64,000 nucleotides of DNA from Sneathiella sp. P13V-1 (GTDB taxonomy: Bacteria > Pseudomonadota > Alphaproteobacteria > Sneathiellales > Sneathiellaceae). Positions 11,183-62,330 of the stretch are shown piece after piece (positions within the stretch are counted from its first letter, which is position 1; the number at the start of each line of letters is the position of its first letter). Position numbers and translations under genes: made by a program. The notes beneath the pieces were generated by a model, which made no database searches, was not told where the DNA came from, and saw only the letters and a program-made list of their open reading frames with translations. The DNA lies in NCBI RefSeq assembly GCF_015143595.1, contig NZ_WYEU01000003.1, forward strand, positions 62,001-126,000, written 5' to 3'.

Positions 11183-14100
11183 TTAGAAATCGACGCGGGC
11201 CTCAAATCTTGCGGAATGACCGATGGATCCAGACTTCAATTCGGCATCGTAATTGAAGCCAACACGGAAGCCATCCATTTCATACCCCAAGCCAAACCCA
11301 AGGTTACCTGCAAACTGCTCCACATCCGCCCCATCGACCTTAAAGGCCGCGCCACCACCGGTGTAAGTGGCCGTTGCACTCGCTGTATCCCCAATAAGGT
11401 CATAGCTCACGCCACCCGTGATCGATGGCACCAGATAGGCTTCTTCCATCCGGATTTTGGAATGCAATTTAACATTTGCAGACGTGATAAAGACATTAAT
11501 CGCATCTGGATCAACTGTCTGGCTAAACCCGCCGCCGCCATTTTCAGTATATTCTTCACCTTCAACATGGGTGTAGTTAAACCCAACAGACGGCGTAAAA
11601 TAAGCCGTGCCGCGGAGATGAAGCGGAATACCAGCATTACCCGCAATCATGAACTGATGAGACACATAGTCGCCAGTTACGTCACGATCGAGACCACCAA
11701 AATTGATCACGCGCCGCGTTTCATTACTGTTATATGCATAACCCGCCATCAGATCCGCATAATACGCCTTCCCGGTAAAATCGGTATAGACCGTGAACTG
11801 ATAACTATTGATATCGATATTGGATTTACCGGCACCATCACCTTCAACCTCTGTTTGGGAAACGGACAGAGACGCACCAATACGATACTGACGTTCCTTA
11901 TCCATGAAGGTATCCACACCGCCTGAGAGGCCGTAAGTGGTTGCATCATATCCATCAACACCGCCGCTAGCATCCTGCGATAACCAGTTACCAAATGGCT
12001 GCAACCACATGCCGATCCCTTTGGAATCATAATCACCGGTGGCAAGGCCCTCATAAACAGTTTGACCATATTGCGCGCCAAAACGAAGGCTCGCCAAGCG
12101 GTTTGAGGCGACACTAAAGACTTGTGTTGAGGTTGCGATATTTGATGTTGTAACACCACCCAAGGCATCCGCCTGCACTGCAACCTGTTCTGCGGCAAGC
12201 GTCGCATCAGCTCCACCCGTGTTTAATGCTTCATTCAATGCAGCGGCACCGGTCGCATCAGCGGCATCCGCAGAAGCTACCGCTTGCGGCAACGCTGTGG
12301 CTACATCGACTGTAGATCCAAGTTCTGATGCTGTCTCCGCCGCAGTTCTTGCTGTTGCCGTAATTTCCACATCATTACCGTTTGCAGAAAGCGCGTATGT
12401 AATAAGGGCATTATCTGTAACAGAAAGATTTGCAATTTCCCCACTAACATCAACAGCACCATCAAACAGTACAATTTTTCCTGAATTAAAGGTAGCCGGT
12501 AGATTGACAGTAGTGGTGCCTGCTGAGGTTACCCCACCCACAATGAATGCGGTTTCTGTATCCTCAATTCCGTTTCCAAGCGTAATCACTGCACCGTCAG
12601 CTAAATCAAGATTTGTATCAACAGTGATCGTCTCTTCCACCCGGATTTCACCATCCAAATCAATGTTCTCGACTTTCGCAGTTTTTAGGAAAGCGCCTTT
12701 GAATGTGGCTCCAATAACGACATCACCAGCAAAATCGGTAATCGTTTCAGCAAAAATCACTTCAGCTTTGCTGTTTTCAACAAGAATGGCATCACCCGCC
12801 ATACCTTCAATATCCAATGCGATATTTTGCTCGGTTGTACCGCTAAACTTAATATCACCGCCATTGGTATCAACTCCACCTGTCCCAGATGTCACGTCAC
12901 CAGAAATATTCAGTGTTTTACCTGCGGCTAGCTGAATTCCATTTGCTTCAGTAATTGTGACATCGTGAACATTGATATCCCCCCCAAGATTCACAGTGCC
13001 ACTTTTTGTATCTGCAATAAGTGCTTTGATTTCTTCGGTAGCGCCAATGTCACCCGACACGCTACCGGCATCGGCAATGTTCAATGTACCCACGACATCT
13101 GAATCATGCGTGTTATCTACGTCTTCCAGACTTTTACCCGCAGCCACAGTAACCGTACCATCTTGCGTGAAATTCACAGTACCTGTTACATCATCAGAAA
13201 AAGAAACGGTGCCTGTTCCATTGATGTTAATGTCTTGCGCATTCACGGTACCGGCAAATGTTGCAACTTTTCCTGCGCCTGGAATAACGGCTACAGACTT
13301 CAATTGCGCAACGCCAGAACCAATATCTCCAGTAACAAGAGTGATGTCATCAGTATTCGCGGTAAAGCCTACCTGACCCTGACCATCTGTGTCCGTTGTA
13401 ATATCACCGTCCAATACCACGTCTGGGTTAAAAGTAACGGCCGCGTCTTCATCAAATAAAATACCTGTCCCGTTTGACGTATCTACATTGCCTGCAAATT
13501 GTACACCTCCATCACCTCGAACAACAATTTGATCAGCATTTACAGTATCGCCAAACAAGCCAATTGTTTTATCACCAGTTGTGATATCTATAGTTTTAAG
13601 AGAGTGAGTTTCACCAACTTTCCCGTTAATAAAAGTCGAAACAAGCGTTGTGTCTCCCATTTCATCCGCTTTGGAGAAGGTCAGCGTGCCAACACCATCA
13701 CCACCGCTTTTGTTGTCCACAGTTCCTGTAATACGCTTATCTTCAGCGATCACAAGGGTTGCATCTGTGGAAAATTCAACAGCCCCTGTCACATTGCCAG
13801 CGACTTCAACCGTTTCTGTACCGCTAATTTCGATGGTTTTCGCTGATACGTTGCCGCCGAACTTAGCTGTACCGCCAGCATTTCCTGTATCCACTGTGAT
13901 TTTATTCAAGGCGTTGAGGCCGCCCACCGCTCCAGATACAACGGTAACGTTCGCACCACCAATATCTTGAATATTTAGCGTACCTTGATCTGCAGCCGTT
14001 GTACTTATTGCGCCAGTGATCGATTTACCACCGACGAGATTAACAGTTCCATCAGCGGAGAAAGTAAGTGATGTAACAGTCACATCATCTTCGAACGTTA

Positions 14101-14827
14101 CCGATTTTGTACTAAAGACTGCAATGTTGCCTGCATCAACAGTACCTTCAAACACTGCTGTTACAGGTCCACCTATGGAAATGGAATCAATTGCTTCGAC
14201 AGAACCAATATTGCCAGCAAAGGTTATGACATTGTCATTTATGTTATCCGCATTGGCAAGCGCTAGAGTAACACTATCATCCTCACTTGCCGCATCAATA
14301 TCCGCAGTGATGATTATATTTTCATTGTTGACGGTATTCACCTGCATCGTGGCTGTGGCTTTTGCAGTGTTACCGAGCGTAATGGCAACATTATCTGATC
14401 CATCAGGTTCTATGCTGCCTTGGAAAATCACGTTACCGCTGGTGACATTAATTTTCAAAGTATCGTTATTATCGTCCCCGTCATCAGCAACTAAAACGTC
14501 ATCAGCGAATGTAACTGAAGTTGAATTCGTTGATGTGATCGTTACGGTCAGGTCTGCTTGACCTGCAGGGTTATCCACCGTTAAAGATGGTGTTGCATCA
14601 GCACCTATCGTGAAAGACCCGCCCGATGCGTCCAGAGTCACTCCAACAGCACCGGCTTCATTAGTCTCTGTCAAACCAGCAGCATCATCCGCTATAATTG
14701 TAGCGCCATCCACGATCTCGGCAGCCAACGAATATCCACTTACAGCCAACATGGATGTGAAGGCCATGATTGACATGCCTCCCATCAACGCTTTTTTAAA
14801 CGAGCAATTTTTCTGTGCGACCAACAT
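11183..14827 (-). CDS. Autotransporter (type V secretion) with repetitive passenger domain
   Basis: The start is set at the ATG at 14827, 7 bp after AGGGG; the frame is open to a TTG at 14851. The 1214-residue protein has a signal peptide (to about residue 35). A long passenger follows, with repeated Gly/Asp/Thr/Val-rich strands of the type GTVNF...G.TVTVAAGKSL and ITG.V, typical of a beta-helix. The last ~280 residues form an autotransporter beta-barrel (MWLQPFGNW, GLGYEMDGFRVGFNYD) ending in the C-terminal aromatic ARVDF. The passenger would be displayed on or released from the cell surface. No catalytic motif is apparent, so an adhesin-like role is the likeliest but unproven. Confidence 0.92.
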   Translation of the reverse strand: MLVAQKNCSFKKALMGGMSIMAFTSMLAVSGYSLAAEIVDGATIIADDAAGLTETNEAGAVGVTLDASGGSFTIGADATPSLTVDNPAGQADLTVTITSTNSTSVTFADDVLVADDGDDNNDTLKINVTSGNVIFQGSIEPDGSDNVAITLGNTAKATATMQVNTVNNENIIITADIDAASEDDSVTLALANADNINDNVITFAGNIGSVEAIDSISIGGPVTAVFEGTVDAGNIAVFSTKSVTFEDDVTVTSLTFSADGTVNLVGGKSITGAISTTAADQGTLNIQDIGGANVTVVSGAVGGLNALNKITVDTGNAGGTAKFGGNVSAKTIEISGTETVEVAGNVTGAVEFSTDATLVIAEDKRITGTVDNKSGGDGVGTLTFSKADEMGDTTLVSTFINGKVGETHSLKTIDITTGDKTIGLFGDTVNADQIVVRGDGGVQFAGNVDTSNGTGILFDEDAAVTFNPDVVLDGDITTDTDGQGQVGFTANTDDITLVTGDIGSGVAQLKSVAVIPGAGKVATFAGTVNAQDININGTGTVSFSDDVTGTVNFTQDGTVTVAAGKSLEDVDNTHDSDVVGTLNIADAGSVSGDIGATEEIKALIADTKSGTVNLGGDINVHDVTITEANGIQLAAGKTLNISGDVTSGTGGVDTNGGDIKFSGTTEQNIALDIEGMAGDAILVENSKAEVIFAETITDFAGDVVIGATFKGAFLKTAKVENIDLDGEIRVEETITVDTNLDLADGAVITLGNGIEDTETAFIVGGVTSAGTTTVNLPATFNSGKIVLFDGAVDVSGEIANLSVTDNALITYALSANGNDVEITATARTAAETASELGSTVDVATALPQAVASADAADATGAAALNEALNTGGADATLAAEQVAVQADALGGVTTSNIATSTQVFSVASNRLASLRFGAQYGQTVYEGLATGDYDSKGIGMWLQPFGNWLSQDASGGVDGYDATTYGLSGGVDTFMDKERQYRIGASLSVSQTEVEGDGAGKSNIDINSYQFTVYTDFTGKAYYADLMAGYAYNSNETRRVINFGGLDRDVTGDYVSHQFMIAGNAGIPLHLRGTAYFTPSVGFNYTHVEGEEYTENGGGGFSQTVDPDAINVFITSANVKLHSKIRMEEAYLVPSITGGVSYDLIGDTASATATYTGGGAAFKVDGADVEQFAGNLGFGLGYEMDGFRVGFNYDAELKSGSIGHSARFEARVDF

Positions 14828-14950
14828 TCGCATACCCCTGCTATTGTCCAAGGTCTTAACCTGATAGATTTATTTGCACCAAAAGTAGCACTCAACCCAT
14901 CCTTTTTTCCACCCAATATTTGGAAAATTGAAGATTGATTTCTCTATTTT

Positions 14951-21627: not shown

Positions 21628-22722
21628 TTACCTGCGAACTTCTTCTGGGAGGAGGAGCAGGAAGTCCTGATCCTCGCCCACTGATGCATGACATTCTTTA
21701 CAGAACACCATTCCTTCAGAATTCTTTCCATTTGTCTGGCCAAACACACTGCCGTTTGGCATGACCATCGTGTACTTCCAATCACCTCCATCAGGATCGA
21801 AACCAGCGGACATTTTCTCCATCAGGAACATAGGTCCTGGCGATACTTGCCCTTTGCCATTTACCTGAAAACTATCTTTGGCGATTACTGATCCAACGGG
21901 CATGGTGCCCAATTCTTCGTATTTCAGGTATCGGGCCTTTGCGATATCATTCGCCCAGTTGTTGACATATCGACCACCGTGGGTAGCCGCGTTATAGGGG
22001 CTGGTAGCCACGTTGGTCCAACTGGTGTAATCCTCCATTTCTGAAAGGTTAGCTTTCGCATAACCAGCTTTCAGCTTATCTTGAACACAATTGTAAGCAG
22101 CAAGTGCTTCCGCAGATGTCAATTCAGGTGTCTCTGCCGCTGCGCATGGATTACAAGGGTTACATGGGTTAGACGCTGCGCAGGGGTTCTTTGCTGCACA
22201 AGGGTTGCATGGATTTTTCGCAGCACATGGATTACACGGATTCTTTGCAGTGCACGGATTGCAAGGGTTTTTAGCCGCGCAAGGGTTACAAGGATTTGCG
22301 GACGCTATGCGTGGAATTTCACATCCCGCCACATATGCAGTTTTTCCACCAGCAGCACAAGGGTTACAGGGATTGCAAGGATTTGACGCTGCACAAGGAT
22401 TACATGGGTTTTTAGCCGCGCAAGGGTTACATGGGTTCTTAGGCGCACATGGACTGCATGGATTTTTCTTCGCGGCGCAAGGGTTCTTCTTAGCGGCACA
22501 CGGATTTTTAGCTGCGCATGGATTACATGCACTTGCAACCGCCAAATTCTCAGCTTTAGTTACAGCTGGCCTTGCCACTGCAGCTGGATTGGTTTTCGCC
22601 GCAGCAACTATTATCGTTGGCGCGGCAGCTGAAATGGTTACTCCACCCAAAGTAACAATTCCTGCACCAAACAATGCTGGCAGTATCGTTGAACAAAATA
22701 GGCGATGACGTAGCGTATTCAT
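21628..22722 (-). CDS. Cytochrome P460-family heme protein with Asn-Pro-Cys repeat region
   Basis: A 364-residue exported protein. The ATG at 22722 follows GGGAG by 8 bp. The signal sequence occupies about 1-33. Residues 66-193 are a repeat region of NPC/NPCNPC blocks separated by AAK, AAKK or AAS, holding 26 cysteines and broken once by a linker (about 124-142). From about 205 a cytochrome P460 domain follows ([59 protein letters not shown]). It ends in a heme-c motif C341-KEC-H345. P460 proteins bind a modified c-type heme and can oxidise hydroxylamine or act on NO species, but many members are uncharacterised. Fusion to a large Cys-repeat module is unusual. It lies upstream of the small repeat protein in one transcript. 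Confidence 0.88.
22144..22527 (-). repeat. DNA encoding the NPC repeats of the P460 protein
   Basis: Two blocks of near-tandem short repeats encoding NPCNPCAAK-type units, separated by a unique linker (around 22296-22353). Sister repeats occur at 21281-21418, so recombination between them is possible. Confidence 0.85.
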
Positions 22723-56153: not shown

Positions 56154-56293
56154 AATTGTCGAGCATGTGACATTCATCTGGCTCTCATGTAATTTTTTCG
56201 CCCGACTACCGTTATAATTCTGGATGTTTCCCCTTCAAGCGTTAGGTAGATATAATACCTCTATCTGTGTTTTGGTATTCAAGGGCGATATCC

Positions 56294-57052
56294 ATGATTA
56301 AGTCAGGCTGTTTGAGGATCGGTATTCTCGGGATCTTATTTTGCTTCGCCTCGCCAGCCTTCACCCAAGAATCAACACCTGTTCTCCAGACGATTGGGCA
56401 AGAGCCATATAGCTATCTAGTCGATGACAATAGATATGAAGGCTATCACTATGAAATCGCCAACAGCATTTTGAAACAGGCCGGGTACAAGGTTACCGCA
56501 GAACCACCCCCCCTTAAACGCCTCATTCATAATCTTAAAGAAGGTCATTCTGATTGCATTCTGGCTGCCAACTCGCCTTTTGCAAGAAAGCACTTCATAG
56601 CTGTCGAAGAGATTGGGCACAATTTGCAGGTCGGCATTTTGCCGCGTGAAGGGATAAACCCTTCAGAATATGAAGACTTGCAGGGGCTGGCAATTGCGGT
56701 TCCACAAGGCATGACCATCGGAGAGCCGTTTGACAGCGACACGTCGCTCATTAAAGTTTCCACTCCCGACTATAATCAAAGCTCTTTAATGCTAAAGCAC
56801 AATAGGATTGACGCAATTATGGGGGCACTGGAAAGCATCCGCTTCAGCGCCTATAAAGTTCTTCCAAACGAACAACCGAGATATGGCACTCCATTGATAA
56901 TACAATCCCTTCCTGTCGCGCTGATATGCAACAAGGACAAAATAGACACTGAGATTGTCAAACGGCTGAAGACCGCCACTCAGGAACTCAAAGCCAATGG
57001 CACAATTGAAAAGATTATTTCAAACTTCTTTGCCAATTTATTTGCTAGCTAA
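56294..57052 (+). CDS. Orphan family-3 solute-binding-like periplasmic protein
   Basis: A 252-residue exported protein starting at the ATG at 56294 (AGGG 8 bp upstream; the frame extends to a GTG at 56267). A signal peptide ends near FAQ/FTQ. The SBP_bac_3 pattern is EPYSYLVDDNRYEGYHYEIANSILKQAGYKV, with the late hinge LKTATQELKANGTIEKI. No permease or ATPase gene lies nearby. The ligand is unknown. Confidence 0.82.
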   Translation: MIKSGCLRIGILGILFCFASPAFTQESTPVLQTIGQEPYSYLVDDNRYEGYHYEIANSILKQAGYKVTAEPPPLKRLIHNLKEGHSDCILAANSPFARKHFIAVEEIGHNLQVGILPREGINPSEYEDLQGLAIAVPQGMTIGEPFDSDTSLIKVSTPDYNQSSLMLKHNRIDAIMGALESIRFSAYKVLPNEQPRYGTPLIIQSLPVALICNKDKIDTEIVKRLKTATQELKANGTIEKIISNFFANLFAS

Positions 57053-57197
57053 CCGAGCATATGAGCTTTGGCAGCACCACCCAGAAGTAACACGCCGCCT
57101 AATTTAGTTAACTTTCATGTTACTTTTTGTCATTATACTAACAAGTTATAGTCAAGACTGACTTTGAATAGTCAGATATTTGTATTGGATAACAGCA

Positions 57198-57932
57198 ATG
57201 TTTCGCTGCTTTGCCATGTTAATCTTACTATCAATTACCATGCCACTGCAGGCTTTTGCTGCGCCAGTGTGCAGCAGCATGAAGATTGCCTATTCCGAAA
57301 ATTGGTATCCCCTTTCCTATGACACGCAGTCCTCAAAAGCGCTGGGAATTGCCCTTGATATTCACCGAAGCATTTTGAAAAAACTCAAAATTCAAGCTGA
57401 ATTTCTGAGCGAGATACCTTGGAAACGACAATTATCAATGGTGCAAGATGGTGCGATTGATGCAATAGCGACCCTCAATTACAACGAAGACCGAGCAAGG
57501 ACATACATTCTAACGGCTCCCATTCATCAGTTTAAGGTCCGCGCCTTCGCGAAAAAAGGAAAGGGCACAACTTTTGAAAATGTCAGTGATTTAAAAAATT
57601 TCCGCATCGCCTATTCAAGAGGCTCAAGTTATGGGAGGGTATTTAACGAACTCGCCGCTAACAGCCCCCTAATTCAACCCATAAACGGTACCAAAAAAAT
57701 TATTGAACTATTGATTGCTGATCGCGTTGACTTCATTGTTCTTCCCCATCACTTGGGCGAGAAACTTATCGTGGACGCCGGGTATCAGAATGCGATTGAA
57801 GCAACGGGACCTGTGATATTTTATCAAAATGTCCACATGGCAATTTCCAAGAAATCACAGTGCTCAGATATCGTTGACAGTTATAACGAGGCATTAAAGG
57901 AAATAAGACAGCAGAAGGATATTTCTGGCTGA
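57198..57932 (+). CDS. Orphan family-3 solute-binding-like periplasmic protein
   Basis: A 244-residue exported protein starting at the ATG at 57198; the frame extends to a TTG at 57180. The signal peptide ends near QAFA. The body has SENWYPLSYDTQSSKALGIALDIHRSILKKL, IPWKRQLSMVQDGAIDAI and a late SYGRVFNELAAN, of SBP_bac_3 type. Its stop codon abuts the stop of the next, convergent gene with no spacer. Orphan: no transport partner seen. Confidence 0.82.
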   Translation: MFRCFAMLILLSITMPLQAFAAPVCSSMKIAYSENWYPLSYDTQSSKALGIALDIHRSILKKLKIQAEFLSEIPWKRQLSMVQDGAIDAIATLNYNEDRARTYILTAPIHQFKVRAFAKKGKGTTFENVSDLKNFRIAYSRGSSYGRVFNELAANSPLIQPINGTKKIIELLIADRVDFIVLPHHLGEKLIVDAGYQNAIEATGPVIFYQNVHMAISKKSQCSDIVDSYNEALKEIRQQKDISG

Positions 57933-58730
57933 TTAATAAATACTGTGCCCGAGGTACTTATCCTTGATCTTCCAGAGCAAGTCTCGATTTTGAGGTTTGG
58001 CAAATTCACCATCTAGCAACGCCAGAAACTCAGCCCCCCAAGAGACATTTGGATTCACCGCCAGAAAGAATGGTTTAGGACTCTGGCACCCGTTAATTCG
58101 GTAGCGAGCAGCGATATCAGTTCCTTTTTGATTATTTTGCTCAAGTTCCAAATACCATTTCACAATATTGATATCTTCCACAAGTGTATCAATGCGCCCC
58201 GCATTAAGAAGCTTCATTAAACGAACCAACCCTTCACTACCGGCCACACTTATCAAATGGCTTTTATTCTCAGGCTGGGAAATATACGTATCAGTGGGCT
58301 CTCCATAACCATAATTTGCAACATAGCCTAACTTGCCATTGAACGATCTCAAAGAGGAAGGACCGTCGTAATTCCAATTGTTCTGCGACAAAGAAATATA
58401 ACATACCTGATATGTATCAATTGGAATTTTTGTCATTCTAAAATCAGGCGCTTCGGAGTAAACAGCGGTTAGAAGGCCGCTTATGTCATTATCATTTCGC
58501 GCCACTTCGATCGCCCTACTCCAAGGGTAAGAGCTTACGACCAGTTCAATACCATGTTTCCCTAATATAGTTTCAAGATATTCATGGACTATGCCTTTTA
58601 CGCCGCCCTCATCACAGGCATACGGACACCAGTCTGTTGTTGCAAGTGCTACAGTCTTAGGGATATCGGCATTAACTGGCCGGGCCAAAAGAAGGCCAAA
58701 TCCTAATAAACCAAGCATCTTTAAATACAT
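57933..58730 (-). CDS. Orphan family-3 solute-binding-like periplasmic protein
   Basis: A 265-residue exported protein. A signal peptide (LGLLGFGLLLARPVNA) is followed by TTDWCPYACDEGGVKGIVHEYLETILGKHG (two cysteines in place of the usual aromatic-rich opening) and SYPWSRAIEVARNDNDISGLL. SBP_bac_3-like fold, orphan of transport genes. It is divergent from the ATP-grasp operon that begins 142 bp away, so it could be linked to it in function (inference only). Confidence 0.82.
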   Translation of the reverse strand: MYLKMLGLLGFGLLLARPVNADIPKTVALATTDWCPYACDEGGVKGIVHEYLETILGKHGIELVVSSYPWSRAIEVARNDNDISGLLTAVYSEAPDFRMTKIPIDTYQVCYISLSQNNWNYDGPSSLRSFNGKLGYVANYGYGEPTDTYISQPENKSHLISVAGSEGLVRLMKLLNAGRIDTLVEDINIVKWYLELEQNNQKGTDIAARYRINGCQSPKPFFLAVNPNVSWGAEFLALLDGEFAKPQNRDLLWKIKDKYLGHSIY

Positions 58731-58872: not shown

Positions 58873-60057
58873 ATGAGATTATTACTTGTTGATCTTCACA
58901 GCAATGCATGTATGGCAAAGCTGCCTTCAAGACTGAAGTTCCTGGATGTCGAGTGTTTTGCTTTTGGCGAAAATGAAACCCTTTTGATGAAAAGCGGTTT
59001 GATTAAGCAAAAATATGGTGCGAAAAGGACCAACGGCAAAATGACTGAAAGAAGTTTTATGTCATCTTTGATTTTTGCCATCGACCATTGCAATCCTGAT
59101 TTTATGGTGACCAATGACGAATTTATCATTCATTCACTCATGAAAATGAGCGCGAATTACAAATCCTCTGAAAAGGCACATCCTGATCCAATAAAAAAAT
59201 TTATAAAACTTATTGATCGATCTTTTTTCGAAGATGTGAACGATGCTTTGCGGCCAAATTCCCTGGAAAAAGCAGAAGCCGCAGGTTTTCCAGTCCCACA
59301 GTTCGAGACAATTCAGAGCTCAGAAGCTTTGAATACCAGCCTCCAAACGACCCCTCGTCCCTTTTTTCTGAAAGAAAGCCTCTCAATCGGAAGGCAAGGC
59401 GTTTTGTATATTGAGGAAAGCACAAAGGATCTCTGGGTACGAAGCGCACTTGAGGCGGCAACTGCGCCTTCTCCGTCTCACCCATATGTGGCCCAGCAAC
59501 CTGCGGATGGCACTGAAATGACGATTTCTTTCGCAGCCTATCAGGGACGATTGCTCGGCTACACCGTCGCCAAACCCCTAAAAACAATATTTAAAGGCGG
59601 ACCGAGCACAGTGATCGAAGGCCAATATCGCCCTCAATGGCAGAAGGTAATTTCCAATTTTGTAACATTAACCGGTTATAATGGATTTGGCGGATTTGAC
59701 GTAATCGATAGAGGAAAAGGTCTTCCTCAAGTCATCGAAGCAAATATGCGGCTCACCCATACGGTTCCATGTGCCCATAAACTTGGATCAAACCTTTTGG
59801 AATTATTCGTTAGTGCGGCAAAGGGAGAGATGCCTGAAGACGCTGAAGCTGTCCACAAAAAACATAAGCAGGCCTTTGCACTTTACCCTGAAGAACTTAT
59901 GCGAGACATGGATAGCCCCCTGTTAGATGAACTCCCCCTGGACGGGCCTTGGTCTGACCCCAGGATTATTCGGCATATGACCCAATATATTCGAAATGAT
60001 GTTCGCTATCCGTCAAATGACCTCGAAAGCAGATTTAACCAAAAACTGAGAAAGTAG
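58873..60057 (+). CDS. ATP-grasp ligase of unknown substrate
   Basis: A 394-residue protein of ATP-grasp type. The N-terminal region (1-130) is a Rossmann-like segment (MRLLLVDLHSNACMAKLP). The ATP-grasp core includes RPFFLKESLSIGRQGVLYIEE (nucleotide-binding Lys), PYVAQQPADGTEMTISFAAYQGRLLG and GFGGFDVIDRGKGLPQVIEANMRLTHT (metal-binding Glu/Asn). It may join a carboxylate to an amine. It is the first gene of a compact operon with an adenylating enzyme, a GNAT enzyme and an acyl carrier protein, 4 bp before the next start. AGGCG precedes the ATG at 58873. Confidence 0.85.
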   Translation: MRLLLVDLHSNACMAKLPSRLKFLDVECFAFGENETLLMKSGLIKQKYGAKRTNGKMTERSFMSSLIFAIDHCNPDFMVTNDEFIIHSLMKMSANYKSSEKAHPDPIKKFIKLIDRSFFEDVNDALRPNSLEKAEAAGFPVPQFETIQSSEALNTSLQTTPRPFFLKESLSIGRQGVLYIEESTKDLWVRSALEAATAPSPSHPYVAQQPADGTEMTISFAAYQGRLLGYTVAKPLKTIFKGGPSTVIEGQYRPQWQKVISNFVTLTGYNGFGGFDVIDRGKGLPQVIEANMRLTHTVPCAHKLGSNLLELFVSAAKGEMPEDAEAVHKKHKQAFALYPEELMRDMDSPLLDELPLDGPWSDPRIIRHMTQYIRNDVRYPSNDLESRFNQKLRK

Positions 60058-60061
60058 AAAG

Positions 60062-61480
60062 ATGCTCTTCAACAGTTTCCTGAACATAGGCCGAATTGCC
60101 ACCACTGAAGACGGCAAATTTATTAAAGCCACAGAACTGCTCAACCGTATTCAAGACCGAAAAGGGCAGTTTGAAAAGGTTATGAAAGCCGGTGACATTG
60201 TTATGATATGTCACGGGGGTAGTGCTGAATTTGTGGTTGATTTACTGGCAAGCTGGTCGCTGGGGGCTGCGGCAGCTTGTGTAAATCCCGCTGCAACCGA
60301 AAATGAAATCAATAATCTGGTAGATTTTATCGAGCCCAGCCTGCTCATTCGGGATAGTGAAAACACTCCGGAGATATTGAAAGAAAGTAACGTAGCCTAT
60401 CCTGCGTCTTTCAACCTCGACAACCCCGCTTTGTATCTATTTACGTCAGGAACTACAGGAACCCCAAAGGGGGTAGAGCATTCGTTTAGATCCCTACTCG
60501 CGCGATTTACGCTTAACCAAACTTATATTGGAAAAGAAAACTTTGAGCGCACGCTTTGTGCCCTTCCAACCCATTTTGGTCATGGATTAATTGGCAATCT
60601 ATTAACCCCTCTTCTTGTGGGAGGCGATGTCGTCCTGCTCAGCGACAAATCTCCAATGGGATTGTCAAAACTGGGACAAATAATTGACGACTTTGACATC
60701 AATTTCCTGAGTTCCGTTCCTTCATTTTGGAAAATGGCGCTTCGCCTCTCCAAGCCTCCCCAAAAGGGCACCCTAAAAAGACTTCATGTCGGCTCTGCTC
60801 CTTTGTCCCTGGAACTCTGGCAAGAAATTGCTACCTGGGCCGGGACCGATAACGTCTACAACATGTATGGGATTACAGAAACCGCAAACTGGATTGGCGG
60901 CACATCGCTTCAAGAAGGCGCGGATGCTGATGGTCTTATTGGATCAGTGTGGGGTGGCAGCGCTTTGGTAAAAAATACTGAAAATGGCGAAATTTCAAAA
61001 TCAGGTACCGGTGAACTCCTGATACAGAGTCCCTCCTTGATGAACGGTTATTTTAAACAACCTGAGTTAACCGCAGACGTCCTGAAAGAAGGATGGTTTC
61101 ACACAGGTGATATTGGACAAATTGAAGAGGATGGGAGCATCAGGATTACCGGCCGCCAAAAATCCGAGATCAATAAAGCGGGCATGAAAATTCTTCCTGA
61201 GGAAATTGATCTGCTGCTTGAAAAGCACGAAAACATTCAGGAGGTGTGCACTTTTGGCCTGCCCGACCCAATAAGTGGCGAGCGTGTTGCCGCTGCAGTT
61301 GTAACCGATGGCTCTGAACTGAACGGCGCGACCTTATCAAAATGGATGACCCCCCTCATTCGCAAAGATGCCATCCCGGAAAAATGGTTTTTTGTCACCG
61401 AAATTCCAAAAACAGACCGGGGTAAAATCAACAGAGACAATGTGAGAAATGTCTGCCTTGAACAGGACACTAGCAAATGA
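60062..61480 (+). CDS. Acyl/amino-acyl-adenylating enzyme (ANL superfamily)
   Basis: A 472-residue member of the adenylate-forming superfamily. The phosphate-binding loop is LFTSGTTGTPKGVEHS; NMYGITETANW and GWFHTGDIGQIEEDG are the A5 and A7 motifs. GRQKSEINKAGMKI (A8) and the C-terminal catalytic Lys in KTDRGKINRD (A10) complete it. It would activate an acid as adenylate and load it onto the acyl carrier protein at the end of the operon. Substrate unknown. It starts 4 bp after the ATP-grasp gene and overlaps the GNAT gene by 4 bp (ATGA). Confidence 0.9.
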   Translation: MLFNSFLNIGRIATTEDGKFIKATELLNRIQDRKGQFEKVMKAGDIVMICHGGSAEFVVDLLASWSLGAAAACVNPAATENEINNLVDFIEPSLLIRDSENTPEILKESNVAYPASFNLDNPALYLFTSGTTGTPKGVEHSFRSLLARFTLNQTYIGKENFERTLCALPTHFGHGLIGNLLTPLLVGGDVVLLSDKSPMGLSKLGQIIDDFDINFLSSVPSFWKMALRLSKPPQKGTLKRLHVGSAPLSLELWQEIATWAGTDNVYNMYGITETANWIGGTSLQEGADADGLIGSVWGGSALVKNTENGEISKSGTGELLIQSPSLMNGYFKQPELTADVLKEGWFHTGDIGQIEEDGSIRITGRQKSEINKAGMKILPEEIDLLLEKHENIQEVCTFGLPDPISGERVAAAVVTDGSELNGATLSKWMTPLIRKDAIPEKWFFVTEIPKTDRGKINRDNVRNVCLEQDTSK

Positions 61481-62061
61481 ACAAAACAAAAGGGCCTGAC
61501 ATAAATCTGGAGACGAAGAATTATGTTCTGCGATCCGTCAAGGACGGACACATTACCGACGCTGTCGTTTCTTGGTACTCCGATAAGGAAGTCATGCGCT
61601 TCATGAATGACAGAATGGATCTGTCACGTGAAAACCTGTGCAAGATGTTTAACCGATACGACAATAGGGATAATTACGCCGTTTTCATTCAGGACAAAGA
61701 AAATGGTAATCCTGTTGGCATCTTTCGCATCTATATAGACAGACGGCACAATCAGGCAACAACCAGTATCATGATCGGCAATAAGGAATATTGGGGGAAA
61801 AATGTTGTTCTTGAGGTTCGAAATATTTTCCTCGATACTCTGTTCAAGAAGGTGAAATTGCGTAAAGTCTGTGGATTTGTACGAGGGCGCAATTTCCCAG
61901 CTCATTTAAACTATATGAAGCAGGGTTTTACAAAAGAAGGTGTTCGCCGGCAGCATTTCCTAAATCGAGATAAAGAATATGAAGACATTGTAGAGTTTGG
62001 CCTGTTAAGCGAAGAATGGTTCGCGCGTGAAGATATACAAAAAGAAGGGCAAGGAAACTGA
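61477..62061 (+). CDS. GNAT-family acetyltransferase (RimJ/RimL-like)
   Basis: A 194-residue GNAT enzyme. It opens with YVLRSVKDGHITDAVVSWYSDKEVMRFMNDR and has a later IMIGNKEYWGKNVVLEVRNIF (acetyl-CoA site) and VRGRNFPAHLNYMKQGFTKEG. This style occurs in ribosomal-protein acetyltransferases and in sugar-amine N-acetyltransferases. Translational coupling (ATGA overlap) to the adenylating enzyme points to acylation within the same pathway, perhaps with acyl-ACP as donor. Confidence 0.87.
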   Translation: MNKTKGPDINLETKNYVLRSVKDGHITDAVVSWYSDKEVMRFMNDRMDLSRENLCKMFNRYDNRDNYAVFIQDKENGNPVGIFRIYIDRRHNQATTSIMIGNKEYWGKNVVLEVRNIFLDTLFKKVKLRKVCGFVRGRNFPAHLNYMKQGFTKEGVRRQHFLNRDKEYEDIVEFGLLSEEWFAREDIQKEGQGN

Positions 62062-62062
62062 A

Positions 62063-62293
62063 ATGTCGTCAATAGATGCTGCTAAATCTGTTTTGGCTGA
62101 AATCCTGGAGATCGAAACGTCGGAACTTACGGACGAAGATACTATCGAAAGTGTTGAAAGGTGGGACAGCCTCAATCACATGCGTATGATCATGCTGCTT
62201 GAAGAGAAACACAAAACCACTGTTGCCACCGATGATGCGATGGAGATGTTCACACTGCAGGCCATTGCTTCCTGGATAGAAAAGCAAACATAA
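62063..62293 (+). CDS. Acyl carrier protein
   Basis: A 76-residue acidic carrier protein starting at the ATG at 62063, 7 bp after AAGGA; the longer frame overlaps the GNAT gene. The 4'-phosphopantetheine serine is S36 in WDSLNHM. It differs from housekeeping AcpP (DSLDTVE) and is similar to specialised carrier proteins of small biosynthetic clusters. It is last of the four-gene operon, 1 bp after the GNAT gene, and is followed by a strong terminator. Confidence 0.92.
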   Translation: MSSIDAAKSVLAEILEIETSELTDEDTIESVERWDSLNHMRMIMLLEEKHKTTVATDDAMEMFTLQAIASWIEKQT

Positions 62294-62330
62294 AAAACAC
62301 CCCTGATTACTTAGGGGCGTTTTTTTTGTT
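62293..62330. terminator. Bidirectional terminator between the ACP operon and a chemoreceptor gene
   Basis: A stem of about 8 bp (ACACCCCT / AGGGGCGT with one G-T pair on the minus strand) flanked by A6 on the left and T8 on the right. It ends both the ACP operon and the minus-strand receptor gene. Confidence 0.9.

What the first reader, a model, noticed from the sequence alone, without database searches (positions are those of the whole stretch)
58873..62293. Four-gene ATP-grasp / adenylation / GNAT / carrier-protein operon
Four genes are packed with 1-4 bp gaps or overlaps: an ATP-grasp ligase, an ANL adenylating enzyme, a GNAT acyltransferase and a specialised acyl carrier protein. Together they have the parts to activate an acid, hold it as a thioester, acylate an amine, and form an amide or peptide bond. 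There is no polyketide or nonribosomal synthase. It looks like a minimal pathway for a small modified amino acid, amide or surface decoration. I cannot match it to a known pathway.
Basis: partly seen in the sequence, partly recalled or inferred. Interest (0 to 1): 0.78.

Follow-up and report, generated by a model that had tools for sequence, protein, structure and literature searches.

The report
Four-gene amide-making operon in Sneathiella
A compact set of four bacterial genes looks like a small assembly line that activates an acid, holds it on a carrier protein and joins it to an amine; three of the genes form a cassette seen in many other bacteria, and the fourth appears to have been added in one marine genus.

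Summary
In detail: window 58873-62293 (+) encodes an ATP-grasp ligase, an ANL adenylating enzyme, a GNAT and an acyl carrier protein, with +4, -4 and +1 bp between genes. The host is a Sneathiella. The quartet is syntenic in 8 of 24 Sneathiella genomes, in one of them with a split ATP-grasp. ANL, GNAT and ACP form a wider cassette: of 68 loci with this ANL family, 41 have both others beside it (38 of the 47 with at least 1 kb downstream). The ATP-grasp was found in 4 of the 68, all Sneathiella-clade. Best reading: the ANL loads a small polar acid, not an alpha-amino acid, on the ACP and the GNAT passes it to an amine, the division of labour shown for SbzL/SbzG/SbzI (PMC6331615, passages); the ATP-grasp makes a second amide bond. 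Acid, amine and product are unknown. A pseudaminic-acid role is not supported in this genus: no NeuB match in the 8 quartet genomes, 5 of them at least 99% complete. New variant of a known kind.

The parts
58873..60057 (+). ATP-grasp ligase, 394 aa; least conserved of the four between Sneathiella species (29-43% identity to the window protein, 8 rows)
   Evidence: PF15632 below cut-off; K167, D276, E289, N291, R293 in 11 of 11 rows; C-terminal FPxE...R...S...W.D signature shared, with small changes, with distant relatives L009 and L010
60062..61480 (+). stand-alone ANL (adenylate-forming) enzyme, 472 aa, with the family signature LPTHFGHGLIGN (168-179)
61477..62061 (+). GNAT acyltransferase, 194 aa, RimL/SpeG/PseH-like fold (AlphaFold2 pLDDT 95.3)
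62063..62293 (+). acyl carrier protein, 76 aa, Ser36 of the DSL motif as expected phosphopantetheine site
62292..62325 (.). terminator-like stem between the operon and the convergent MCP gene
   Evidence: pattern match only; not more sites than in shuffles

Best explanation
The ANL adenylates a small polar carboxylic acid and loads it onto the phosphopantetheine arm of the dedicated ACP. The GNAT then transfers the acyl group from the ACP to a primary amine, giving an amide. In Sneathiella an ATP-grasp ligase has been added, which probably makes a second amide bond through an acyl phosphate, on either the product or the substrate of the trio. Shown here: the four families, motifs in place, operon order, recurrence of the trio in many Proteobacteria, and the ATP-grasp as the variable add-on. 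Inferred: ACP loading, ACP as donor for the GNAT, the nature of the acid, the order of steps and the second ligation. Unknown: acid, amine and product; an amino sugar or amino-acid-like amine is my first guess.
For: Trio recurs: 41 of 68 ANL loci have GNAT and ACP beside the ANL, 38 of the 47 with at least 1 kb of downstream sequence (loci chosen by the ANL motif). Of the 10 non-Sneathiella loci found by profile rather than by motif, 7 have both; all 10 recur among the 68, so the two counts are not independent. Quartet order kept in 8 of 24 Sneathiella genomes. ANL motifs intact. No row has an Asp in the A4 stretch 171-175 (HFGHG in 17 of 17), where LgrA has FDGS and oxalyl-CoA synthetase a His opposite His174; TIGR01733 amino-acid adenylation scores 171.5 against a cut-off of 317.4, so an alpha-amino acid is unlikely. 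The two best PDB matches of the ANL profile are oxalyl-CoA synthetases, 253 and 239 bits. His171, His174, Asn276 and Trp277 are invariant in 17 of 17 rows; in 67 rows from all contexts Trp277 is 67 of 67 and Asn276 66 of 67, the two His there by construction. The GNAT model is an amine-acyltransferase fold. Precedent: SbzL loads SbzG or SbzK and the GNAT SbzI transfers from the carrier to an amino group; in the parallel SbzB/SbzC assay CoA gave no product (PMC6331615, passages).
Against: No biochemical data. The G/A of the GNAT pyrophosphate loop is kept in 29 of 56 readable trio GNATs, so CoA use is not excluded (of six control loci only 2 rows were readable). ATP-grasp and trio are separable: G290 keeps an ATP-grasp next to the MCP gene without the ANL, and the ATP-grasp of S. 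glossodoripedis is in two ORFs while its trio is intact. 5 of the 47 loci with room have neither GNAT nor ACP by my profiles, 2 GNAT only and 2 ACP only. The general fatty-acyl ligase model NF004837 scores 219.9 bits on the ANL (cut-off 476). The operon's ANL is less conserved in the genus (62-67%) than the FadD-like ANL next door (82-85%). The ATP-grasp fold prediction failed (pLDDT 39.7).
Confidence: 0.58

Rival explanations
1. Surface-glycan decoration: the GNAT N-acylates a nucleotide-activated amino sugar with the ACP-bound acid, as PseH does with acetyl-CoA, and the ATP-grasp amidates a sugar acid.
For: 8 of 68 ANL loci lie beside members of PseC-, PseG- or NeuB-like clusters (one member of each cluster checked by model); the best-scoring NCBIfam model of the window GNAT is PseH, although below cut-off (28.4 against 93.1); the distant ATP-grasp relative L009 lies among polysaccharide genes, and L132 perhaps, both read by eye.
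Against: In those 8 loci the full trio was detected in only 1 (L088); 3 have room downstream and neither GNAT nor ACP (L073, L097, L101). No glycosyl gene recognised beside the Sneathiella operon. No NeuB match in the 8 quartet genomes, of which 3 are only 66-86% complete; NeuB occurs in 2 of 24, and no ANL of the family was found in those two (one is 56% complete). In the tree the glycan-labelled ANLs lie apart from the Sneathiella clade (labels partly by eye). I lowered this from 0.25 to 0.2 on recounting the 8 loci.
Confidence: 0.2
2. N-acylation of polyamines or aminoglycoside-like small amines, a detoxifying or signalling reaction.
For: Nearest solved relatives of the GNAT by sequence and by fold include SpeG spermidine acetyltransferases and proteins named aminoglycoside 6'-acetyltransferase.
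Against: RimL, MccE and PseH chains have tied Z-scores; NCBIfam SpeG model 21.9 against 218. A dedicated ANL and ACP would be unusual for this job, and the ATP-grasp is unexplained.
Confidence: 0.1
3. Aminolipid or N-acyl amino acid synthesis from a fatty acid, by analogy with FeeM.
For: GNATs that take acyl groups from a carrier protein exist (FeeM, named in PMC6331615, passages); fatty-acyl ligase models score well though below cut-off on the ANL (219.9 against 476).
Against: Oxalyl-CoA synthetases score above fatty-acyl ligases in the PDB (253 and 239 against 199 for FadD13). Conserved His, Asn and Trp near the aligned pocket suggest a small polar acid. No second lipid acyltransferase recognised nearby.
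Confidence: 0.07

Closest known systems
SbzL / SbzG-SbzK / SbzI (and SbzB / SbzC) of SB-203208 biosynthesis, PMC6331615 (passages)
   Same: A discrete adenylating enzyme loads an acid on a stand-alone carrier protein and a GNAT transfers it to an acceptor.
   Different: Streptomyces cluster of 18 genes with known products; here a 3- or 4-gene unit in Proteobacteria with unknown product and, in Sneathiella, an ATP-grasp. Sequence relatedness was not tested.
Oxalyl-CoA synthetases (PDB 5ie0, 6qjz)
   Same: Best PDB matches of the ANL profile; a His opposite ANL His174.
   Different: They form a CoA thioester (their name). In the printed alignment the LPTHFGHGLIGN stretch reads LPLFHVHGLLAG and Asn276-Trp277 reads His-Leu.
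PseH, UDP-4-amino-4,6-dideoxy-N-acetyl-altrosamine N-acetyltransferase
   Same: RimL-like GNAT fold (4ri1 Z 20.0, rmsd 2.3, 173 aligned); best-scoring NCBIfam model of the window GNAT.
   Different: Score 28.4 against cut-off 93.1; no NeuB match in the genome.
Aeromonas group II flagellar glycosylation islands (PMC7874193, passages)
   Same: ACP, AMP-dependent synthetase and pse genes in one island.
   Different: They also carry 3-oxoacyl-ACP reductase, LuxE and LuxC; relation of that synthetase to this ANL not tested.
Predicted peptide-synthesis operons with ATP-grasp, acyl-CoA ligase, GNAT and ACP genes (PMC2922099, passages)
   Same: Comparable part list, predicted to make small peptides.
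   Different: Built around tRNA-synthetase-like or cupin-oxygenase genes, which are not among the four genes here.

Membership tests
Discrete ANL-ACP-GNAT amide module (Sbz type) | stand-alone adenylating enzyme with intact motifs | tested here: met
Discrete ANL-ACP-GNAT amide module (Sbz type) | stand-alone carrier protein with the attachment serine | tested here: met
Discrete ANL-ACP-GNAT amide module (Sbz type) | GNAT encoded with them | tested here: met
Discrete ANL-ACP-GNAT amide module (Sbz type) | GNAT uses the carrier-bound acyl group | not testable with these tools
   loop evidence mixed
Amino-acid adenylation domain (TIGR01733) | score over the curated cut-off | tested here: not met
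   171.5 against 317.4
Amino-acid adenylation domain (TIGR01733) | A4-motif aspartate that holds the alpha-amino group (role recalled) | tested here: not met
   HFGHG at 171-175 in 17 of 17 rows; the Asp of the first LgrA domain (FDGS) pairs with His174 and that of the second domain with Gly175, so the register is uncertain by one but no Asp is there
PseH (TIGR03585) | score over the curated cut-off | tested here: not met
   28.4 against 93.1
PseH (TIGR03585) | nonulosonic acid pathway in the genome | tested here: not met
   no PF03102 match in G000; other genes of the pathway not searched
ATPgrasp_Ter (PF15632) | score over the gathering cut-off | tested here: not met
   19.7 against 29.1
Oxalyl-CoA synthetase | oxalate as substrate | not testable with these tools
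   nearest PDB family only
SpeG polyamine acetyltransferase | shared fold | tested here: met
   3wr7 Z 20.9, rmsd 2.0, 168 aligned, tied with RimL, MccE and PseH
SpeG polyamine acetyltransferase | score over the curated cut-off of the SpeG model | tested here: not met
   NF011709 21.9 against 218
NRPS or PKS | condensation or ketosynthase domain in the operon | tested here: not met
   Pfam scan of the four proteins; the rest of the genome was not searched

The most novel reading that the evidence does not exclude
An N-acylation cassette (ANL-GNAT-ACP, marked by LPTHFGHGLIGN) attaches one and the same small polar acid, possibly oxalate-like, to different amines in different settings: peptides in lasso-like clusters, amino sugars in some glycan clusters, and in Sneathiella a metabolite that a fast-changing ATP-grasp ligase then varies from species to species.
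Probability: 0.17. Interest if true: 0.68.

Novelty: new variant of a known kind. Interest (0 to 1): 0.5.

Why it matters
If right, this is a small acyl-carrier cassette outside NRPS and PKS systems, seen in many Alphaproteobacteria and in a few other groups. In Sneathiella a better-conserved activation enzyme beside a fast-changing ligase would suggest a common building block with a species-specific end product. The trio is small enough for one-pot reconstitution, so one adenylation screen could find the acid. It would also mean that some proteins that annotation would name 'acyl-CoA synthetase' or 'GNAT acetyltransferase' work on an ACP.

Tried and rejected
Tried without result: the search for related loci with the ATP-grasp in genome contigs (30 pattern hits, none confirmed); plasmids with the ANL, no match at 1e-60; AlphaFold2 of the ATP-grasp with three sequences, pLDDT 39.7, not used; Asn-synthase search in 7 genomes with lasso-like neighbours: matches in 7 of 7, but I did not map them to the loci, so it decides nothing; paper search for oxalyl-CoA synthetase pocket residues, nothing usable in the listing. 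FeeM, the Sbz proteins and carrier-loading ATP-grasp ligases were not compared; that FeeM is not listed says nothing.

Considered and rejected: amino-acid adenylation; a pseudaminic-acid pathway in Sneathiella; the Ter-operon ATP-grasp (below cut-off); the idea that the altered GNAT pyrophosphate loop proves ACP use: 27 of 56 readable trio GNATs lack G/A at position 6 and 29 keep it (some loci give more than one GNAT). Statement on print: the searches in open PMC papers listed nothing that I recognised as a description of this cassette; I read passages of four papers and only listings of the rest. Subscription papers are mostly missing from that library.

Caveats on counts: all 10 loci and 5 of the Sneathiella loci recur among the 71 stretches under other ids (judged by equal contig lengths), so the samples overlap. 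3 of the 71 stretches hold no such ANL (L071, L092, L112). Most stretches are 8 kb (some shorter) with the ANL anywhere in them, so missing neighbours, upstream ones too, may be cut off. In one search at most 4 candidates per genome were scored for most genomes. In one search the ACP rows of L031 and L033 and the split ATP-grasp of L031 are missing from the identity list. In one search the motif 171-179 is invariant by construction. In one search the labels were mine: 10 loci listed as glycan (9 in the tree; L107, L114 and L116 by eye; L121, which has a PseC-like neighbour, was left unlabelled) and 7 as lasso-like (6 in the tree).
Full report
OBSERVATION. Four ORFs in one direction fill 58873-62293: 394, 472, 194 and 76 aa, with +4, -4 and +1 bp between them. 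The ORF list starts the ACP at GTG 62027; the ATG at 62063 fits the end of the GNAT gene. Upstream are genes for solute-binding proteins (PF00497 in two; the third, 57933-58730 on the minus strand, has no Pfam hit); downstream is a convergent gene that reads as a methyl-accepting chemotaxis protein. A terminator-like stem lies between.

HOST AND SYNTENY. The window is a stretch of contig C3 of a 3.7-Mb genome. Same-genus genome G292 has a contig of the same length as one of Sneathiella glossodoripedis JCM 23214, which names the genus. Among 24 genomes of the genus, 8 have the ANL at E <= 1e-80 and 10 an ATP-grasp match. In 8 the order ATP-grasp, ANL, GNAT, ACP is kept beside the MCP gene; in one of these, G292 (L031), the ATP-grasp is in two overlapping ORFs. 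G290 has the ATP-grasp at this place without the trio. In G304 the ATP-grasp stands at a contig end and no ANL was found in that assembly.

RATES. Identity to the window protein within the genus: ANL 62-67% (7 rows), GNAT 42-48% (7), ACP 34-52% (5), ATP-grasp 29-43% (8, including G290 and G304). Neighbours, named by eye: IspB-like 74-87% (3), GlyQ-like 88-96% (3), FadD-like 82-85% (8), MCP 47-57% (8). So within the operon the ANL is the best conserved and the ligase the least, but none is as well kept as housekeeping genes. Relaxed constraint is as possible as diversification.

THE TRIO BEYOND SNEATHIELLA. A profile search of 385 alphaproteobacterial genomes gave hits in 13, 3 of them Sneathiella; the weakest was at 1.1e-129 although the limit was 1e-80, so the family looks cleanly set apart. 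Of the 10 outside the genus, 7 have GNAT and ACP next to the ANL and none of the 10 loci an ATP-grasp match. All 17 ANLs share H171-F-G-H-G-L-I-G-N179. A scan of genome contigs for HFGHGLIGN gave 71 stretches, 68 with this ANL; 51 have a GNAT and 44 an ACP nearby, 41 both; of the 47 with at least 1 kb downstream, 38 have both, 2 GNAT only, 2 ACP only and 5 neither. The ATP-grasp was found in 4 of 68 (L075, L094, L122, L123), all Sneathiella-clade; upstream sequence is not held for every locus. Carriers outside Alphaproteobacteria by record title include Gammaproteobacteria, Legionellales, Geobacteraceae and a Planctomycetota MAG; MAG binning may err.

CONTEXTS. Eight of 68 loci lie beside members of PseC-, PseG- or NeuB-like clusters (L073, L080, L081, L088, L097, L101, L104, L121); one member of each cluster was checked (PseC 472.8 over 423.5, PseG 237.3 over 153.55, NeuB PF03102 254.4 over 22.1). 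In these 8 the full trio was detected only in L088, so in glycan clusters the ANL mostly seems to work with other partners, or they escaped my profiles. Seven lie beside lasso-like accessory genes (L070, L091, L098, L099, L110, L111, L124; B2 56.2 over 33, PqqD 45.3 over 23.4, NTP_transf_5 104.4 over 31.2, one member each; the HprK-like protein is below its cut-off), and 5 of these 7 have the full trio. Others, such as Kaistia adipata L118, sit among what look like housekeeping genes. In a tree of 67 ANLs, Sneathiella is one clade (100/100) and each context label needs one change; labels were mine, partly by eye, and 44 rows had none.

WHAT THE ANL MAY LOAD. Best PDB matches are oxalyl-CoA synthetases (253 and 239 bits), ahead of LgrA (211, two domains together), FadD13 (199), a third oxalate-CoA ligase (198) and MenE (183). 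In the printed alignments His174 pairs with a His of oxalyl-CoA synthetase and with the Asp of FDGS in the first LgrA domain; in the second LgrA domain the Asp falls one column on. Asn276 (66 of 67) and Trp277 (67 of 67) are conserved across contexts. In five loci (L081, L106, L107, L114, L116) an isocitrate-lyase/PEP-mutase-like protein follows the ANL or ACP, fused to the ACP in Thalassospira lucentensis L116; the one tested, of L106, is nearest to petal death protein 1zlp, and oxaloacetate acetylhydrolase 3lye is further down the same list. Oxaloacetate hydrolases make oxalate (recalled), so oxalate is a guess worth testing, no more.

THE GNAT. Predicted with pLDDT 95.3. Best Foldseek match SpeG 4mj8; VIA-align puts RimL, SpeG, MccE, AAC(6')-Ie and PseH within 1.3 Z units. 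The fold shows an acyltransferase for amines, not which amine. The Q/RxxGxG/A loop (consensus recalled) is variable, a hint at most.

THE ATP-GRASP. A rare family: matches in 5 of 289 class genomes, 3 of them Sneathiella, and in 3 of 398 phylum genomes, the window's own included. Outside relatives G004 and G066 (L009, L010) share the C-terminal signature and each lies beside a flavoprotein of similar sequence, divergent in L009 and on the same strand in L010 (only that of L009 was scanned). By eye L009 is a polysaccharide cluster with glycosyltransferases and a Wzc-like gene; L010 is not clearly one; L132 (G625) has cellulase-like genes within 8 kb.

CONCLUSION. What it works like: an Sbz-type carrier-protein N-acylation module with an extra ligase. 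Is it a member of a named family? The trio meets the part-list features of that kind and fails the PseH, amino-acid A-domain and ATPgrasp_Ter cut-offs. The mechanism of the trio is likely, the second ligation plausible, the product open. On recounting the eight glycan-linked loci I lowered the glycan rival (0.25 to 0.2) and the novel case (0.2 to 0.17).

Noticed in passing
L116 3736-4884 (Thalassospira lucentensis): ACP fused to an isocitrate-lyase/PEP-mutase-like domain just after the ANL; separate lyase-like ORFs in L081, L106, L107 and L114.
   Followed up: partly
L065 2149-5985 and L078 1-3055: Several GNAT-like ORFs around one ANL (four in L065, three in L078), an apparent GNAT array.
   Followed up: no
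L070, L091, L098, L099, L110, L111, L124: ANL of this family beside lasso-like accessory genes (B2, PqqD, HprK-like, NTP_transf_5); no cyclase or precursor located.
   Followed up: partly
L075 7015-8000 / L031 9016-10193 (S. glossodoripedis): ATP-grasp in two overlapping ORFs; real decay or sequencing error cannot be told.
   Followed up: no
L036 8769-9992 (G290): ATP-grasp kept beside the MCP gene without the trio; this genome is one of two in the genus with a NeuB match.
   Followed up: partly
window 21628-22722 (-): Protein with many [12 protein letters not shown]-type Cys-Pro repeats and a C-terminal CKECH haem-like motif (by eye).
   Followed up: no
window 56267-58730: Three solute-binding-protein-like genes in a row with no transporter gene recognised beside them (two PF00497; one without Pfam hit).
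   Followed up: no
window 11183-14851 (-): 1222-aa autotransporter-like protein with a C-terminal beta-barrel look (by eye).
   Followed up: no
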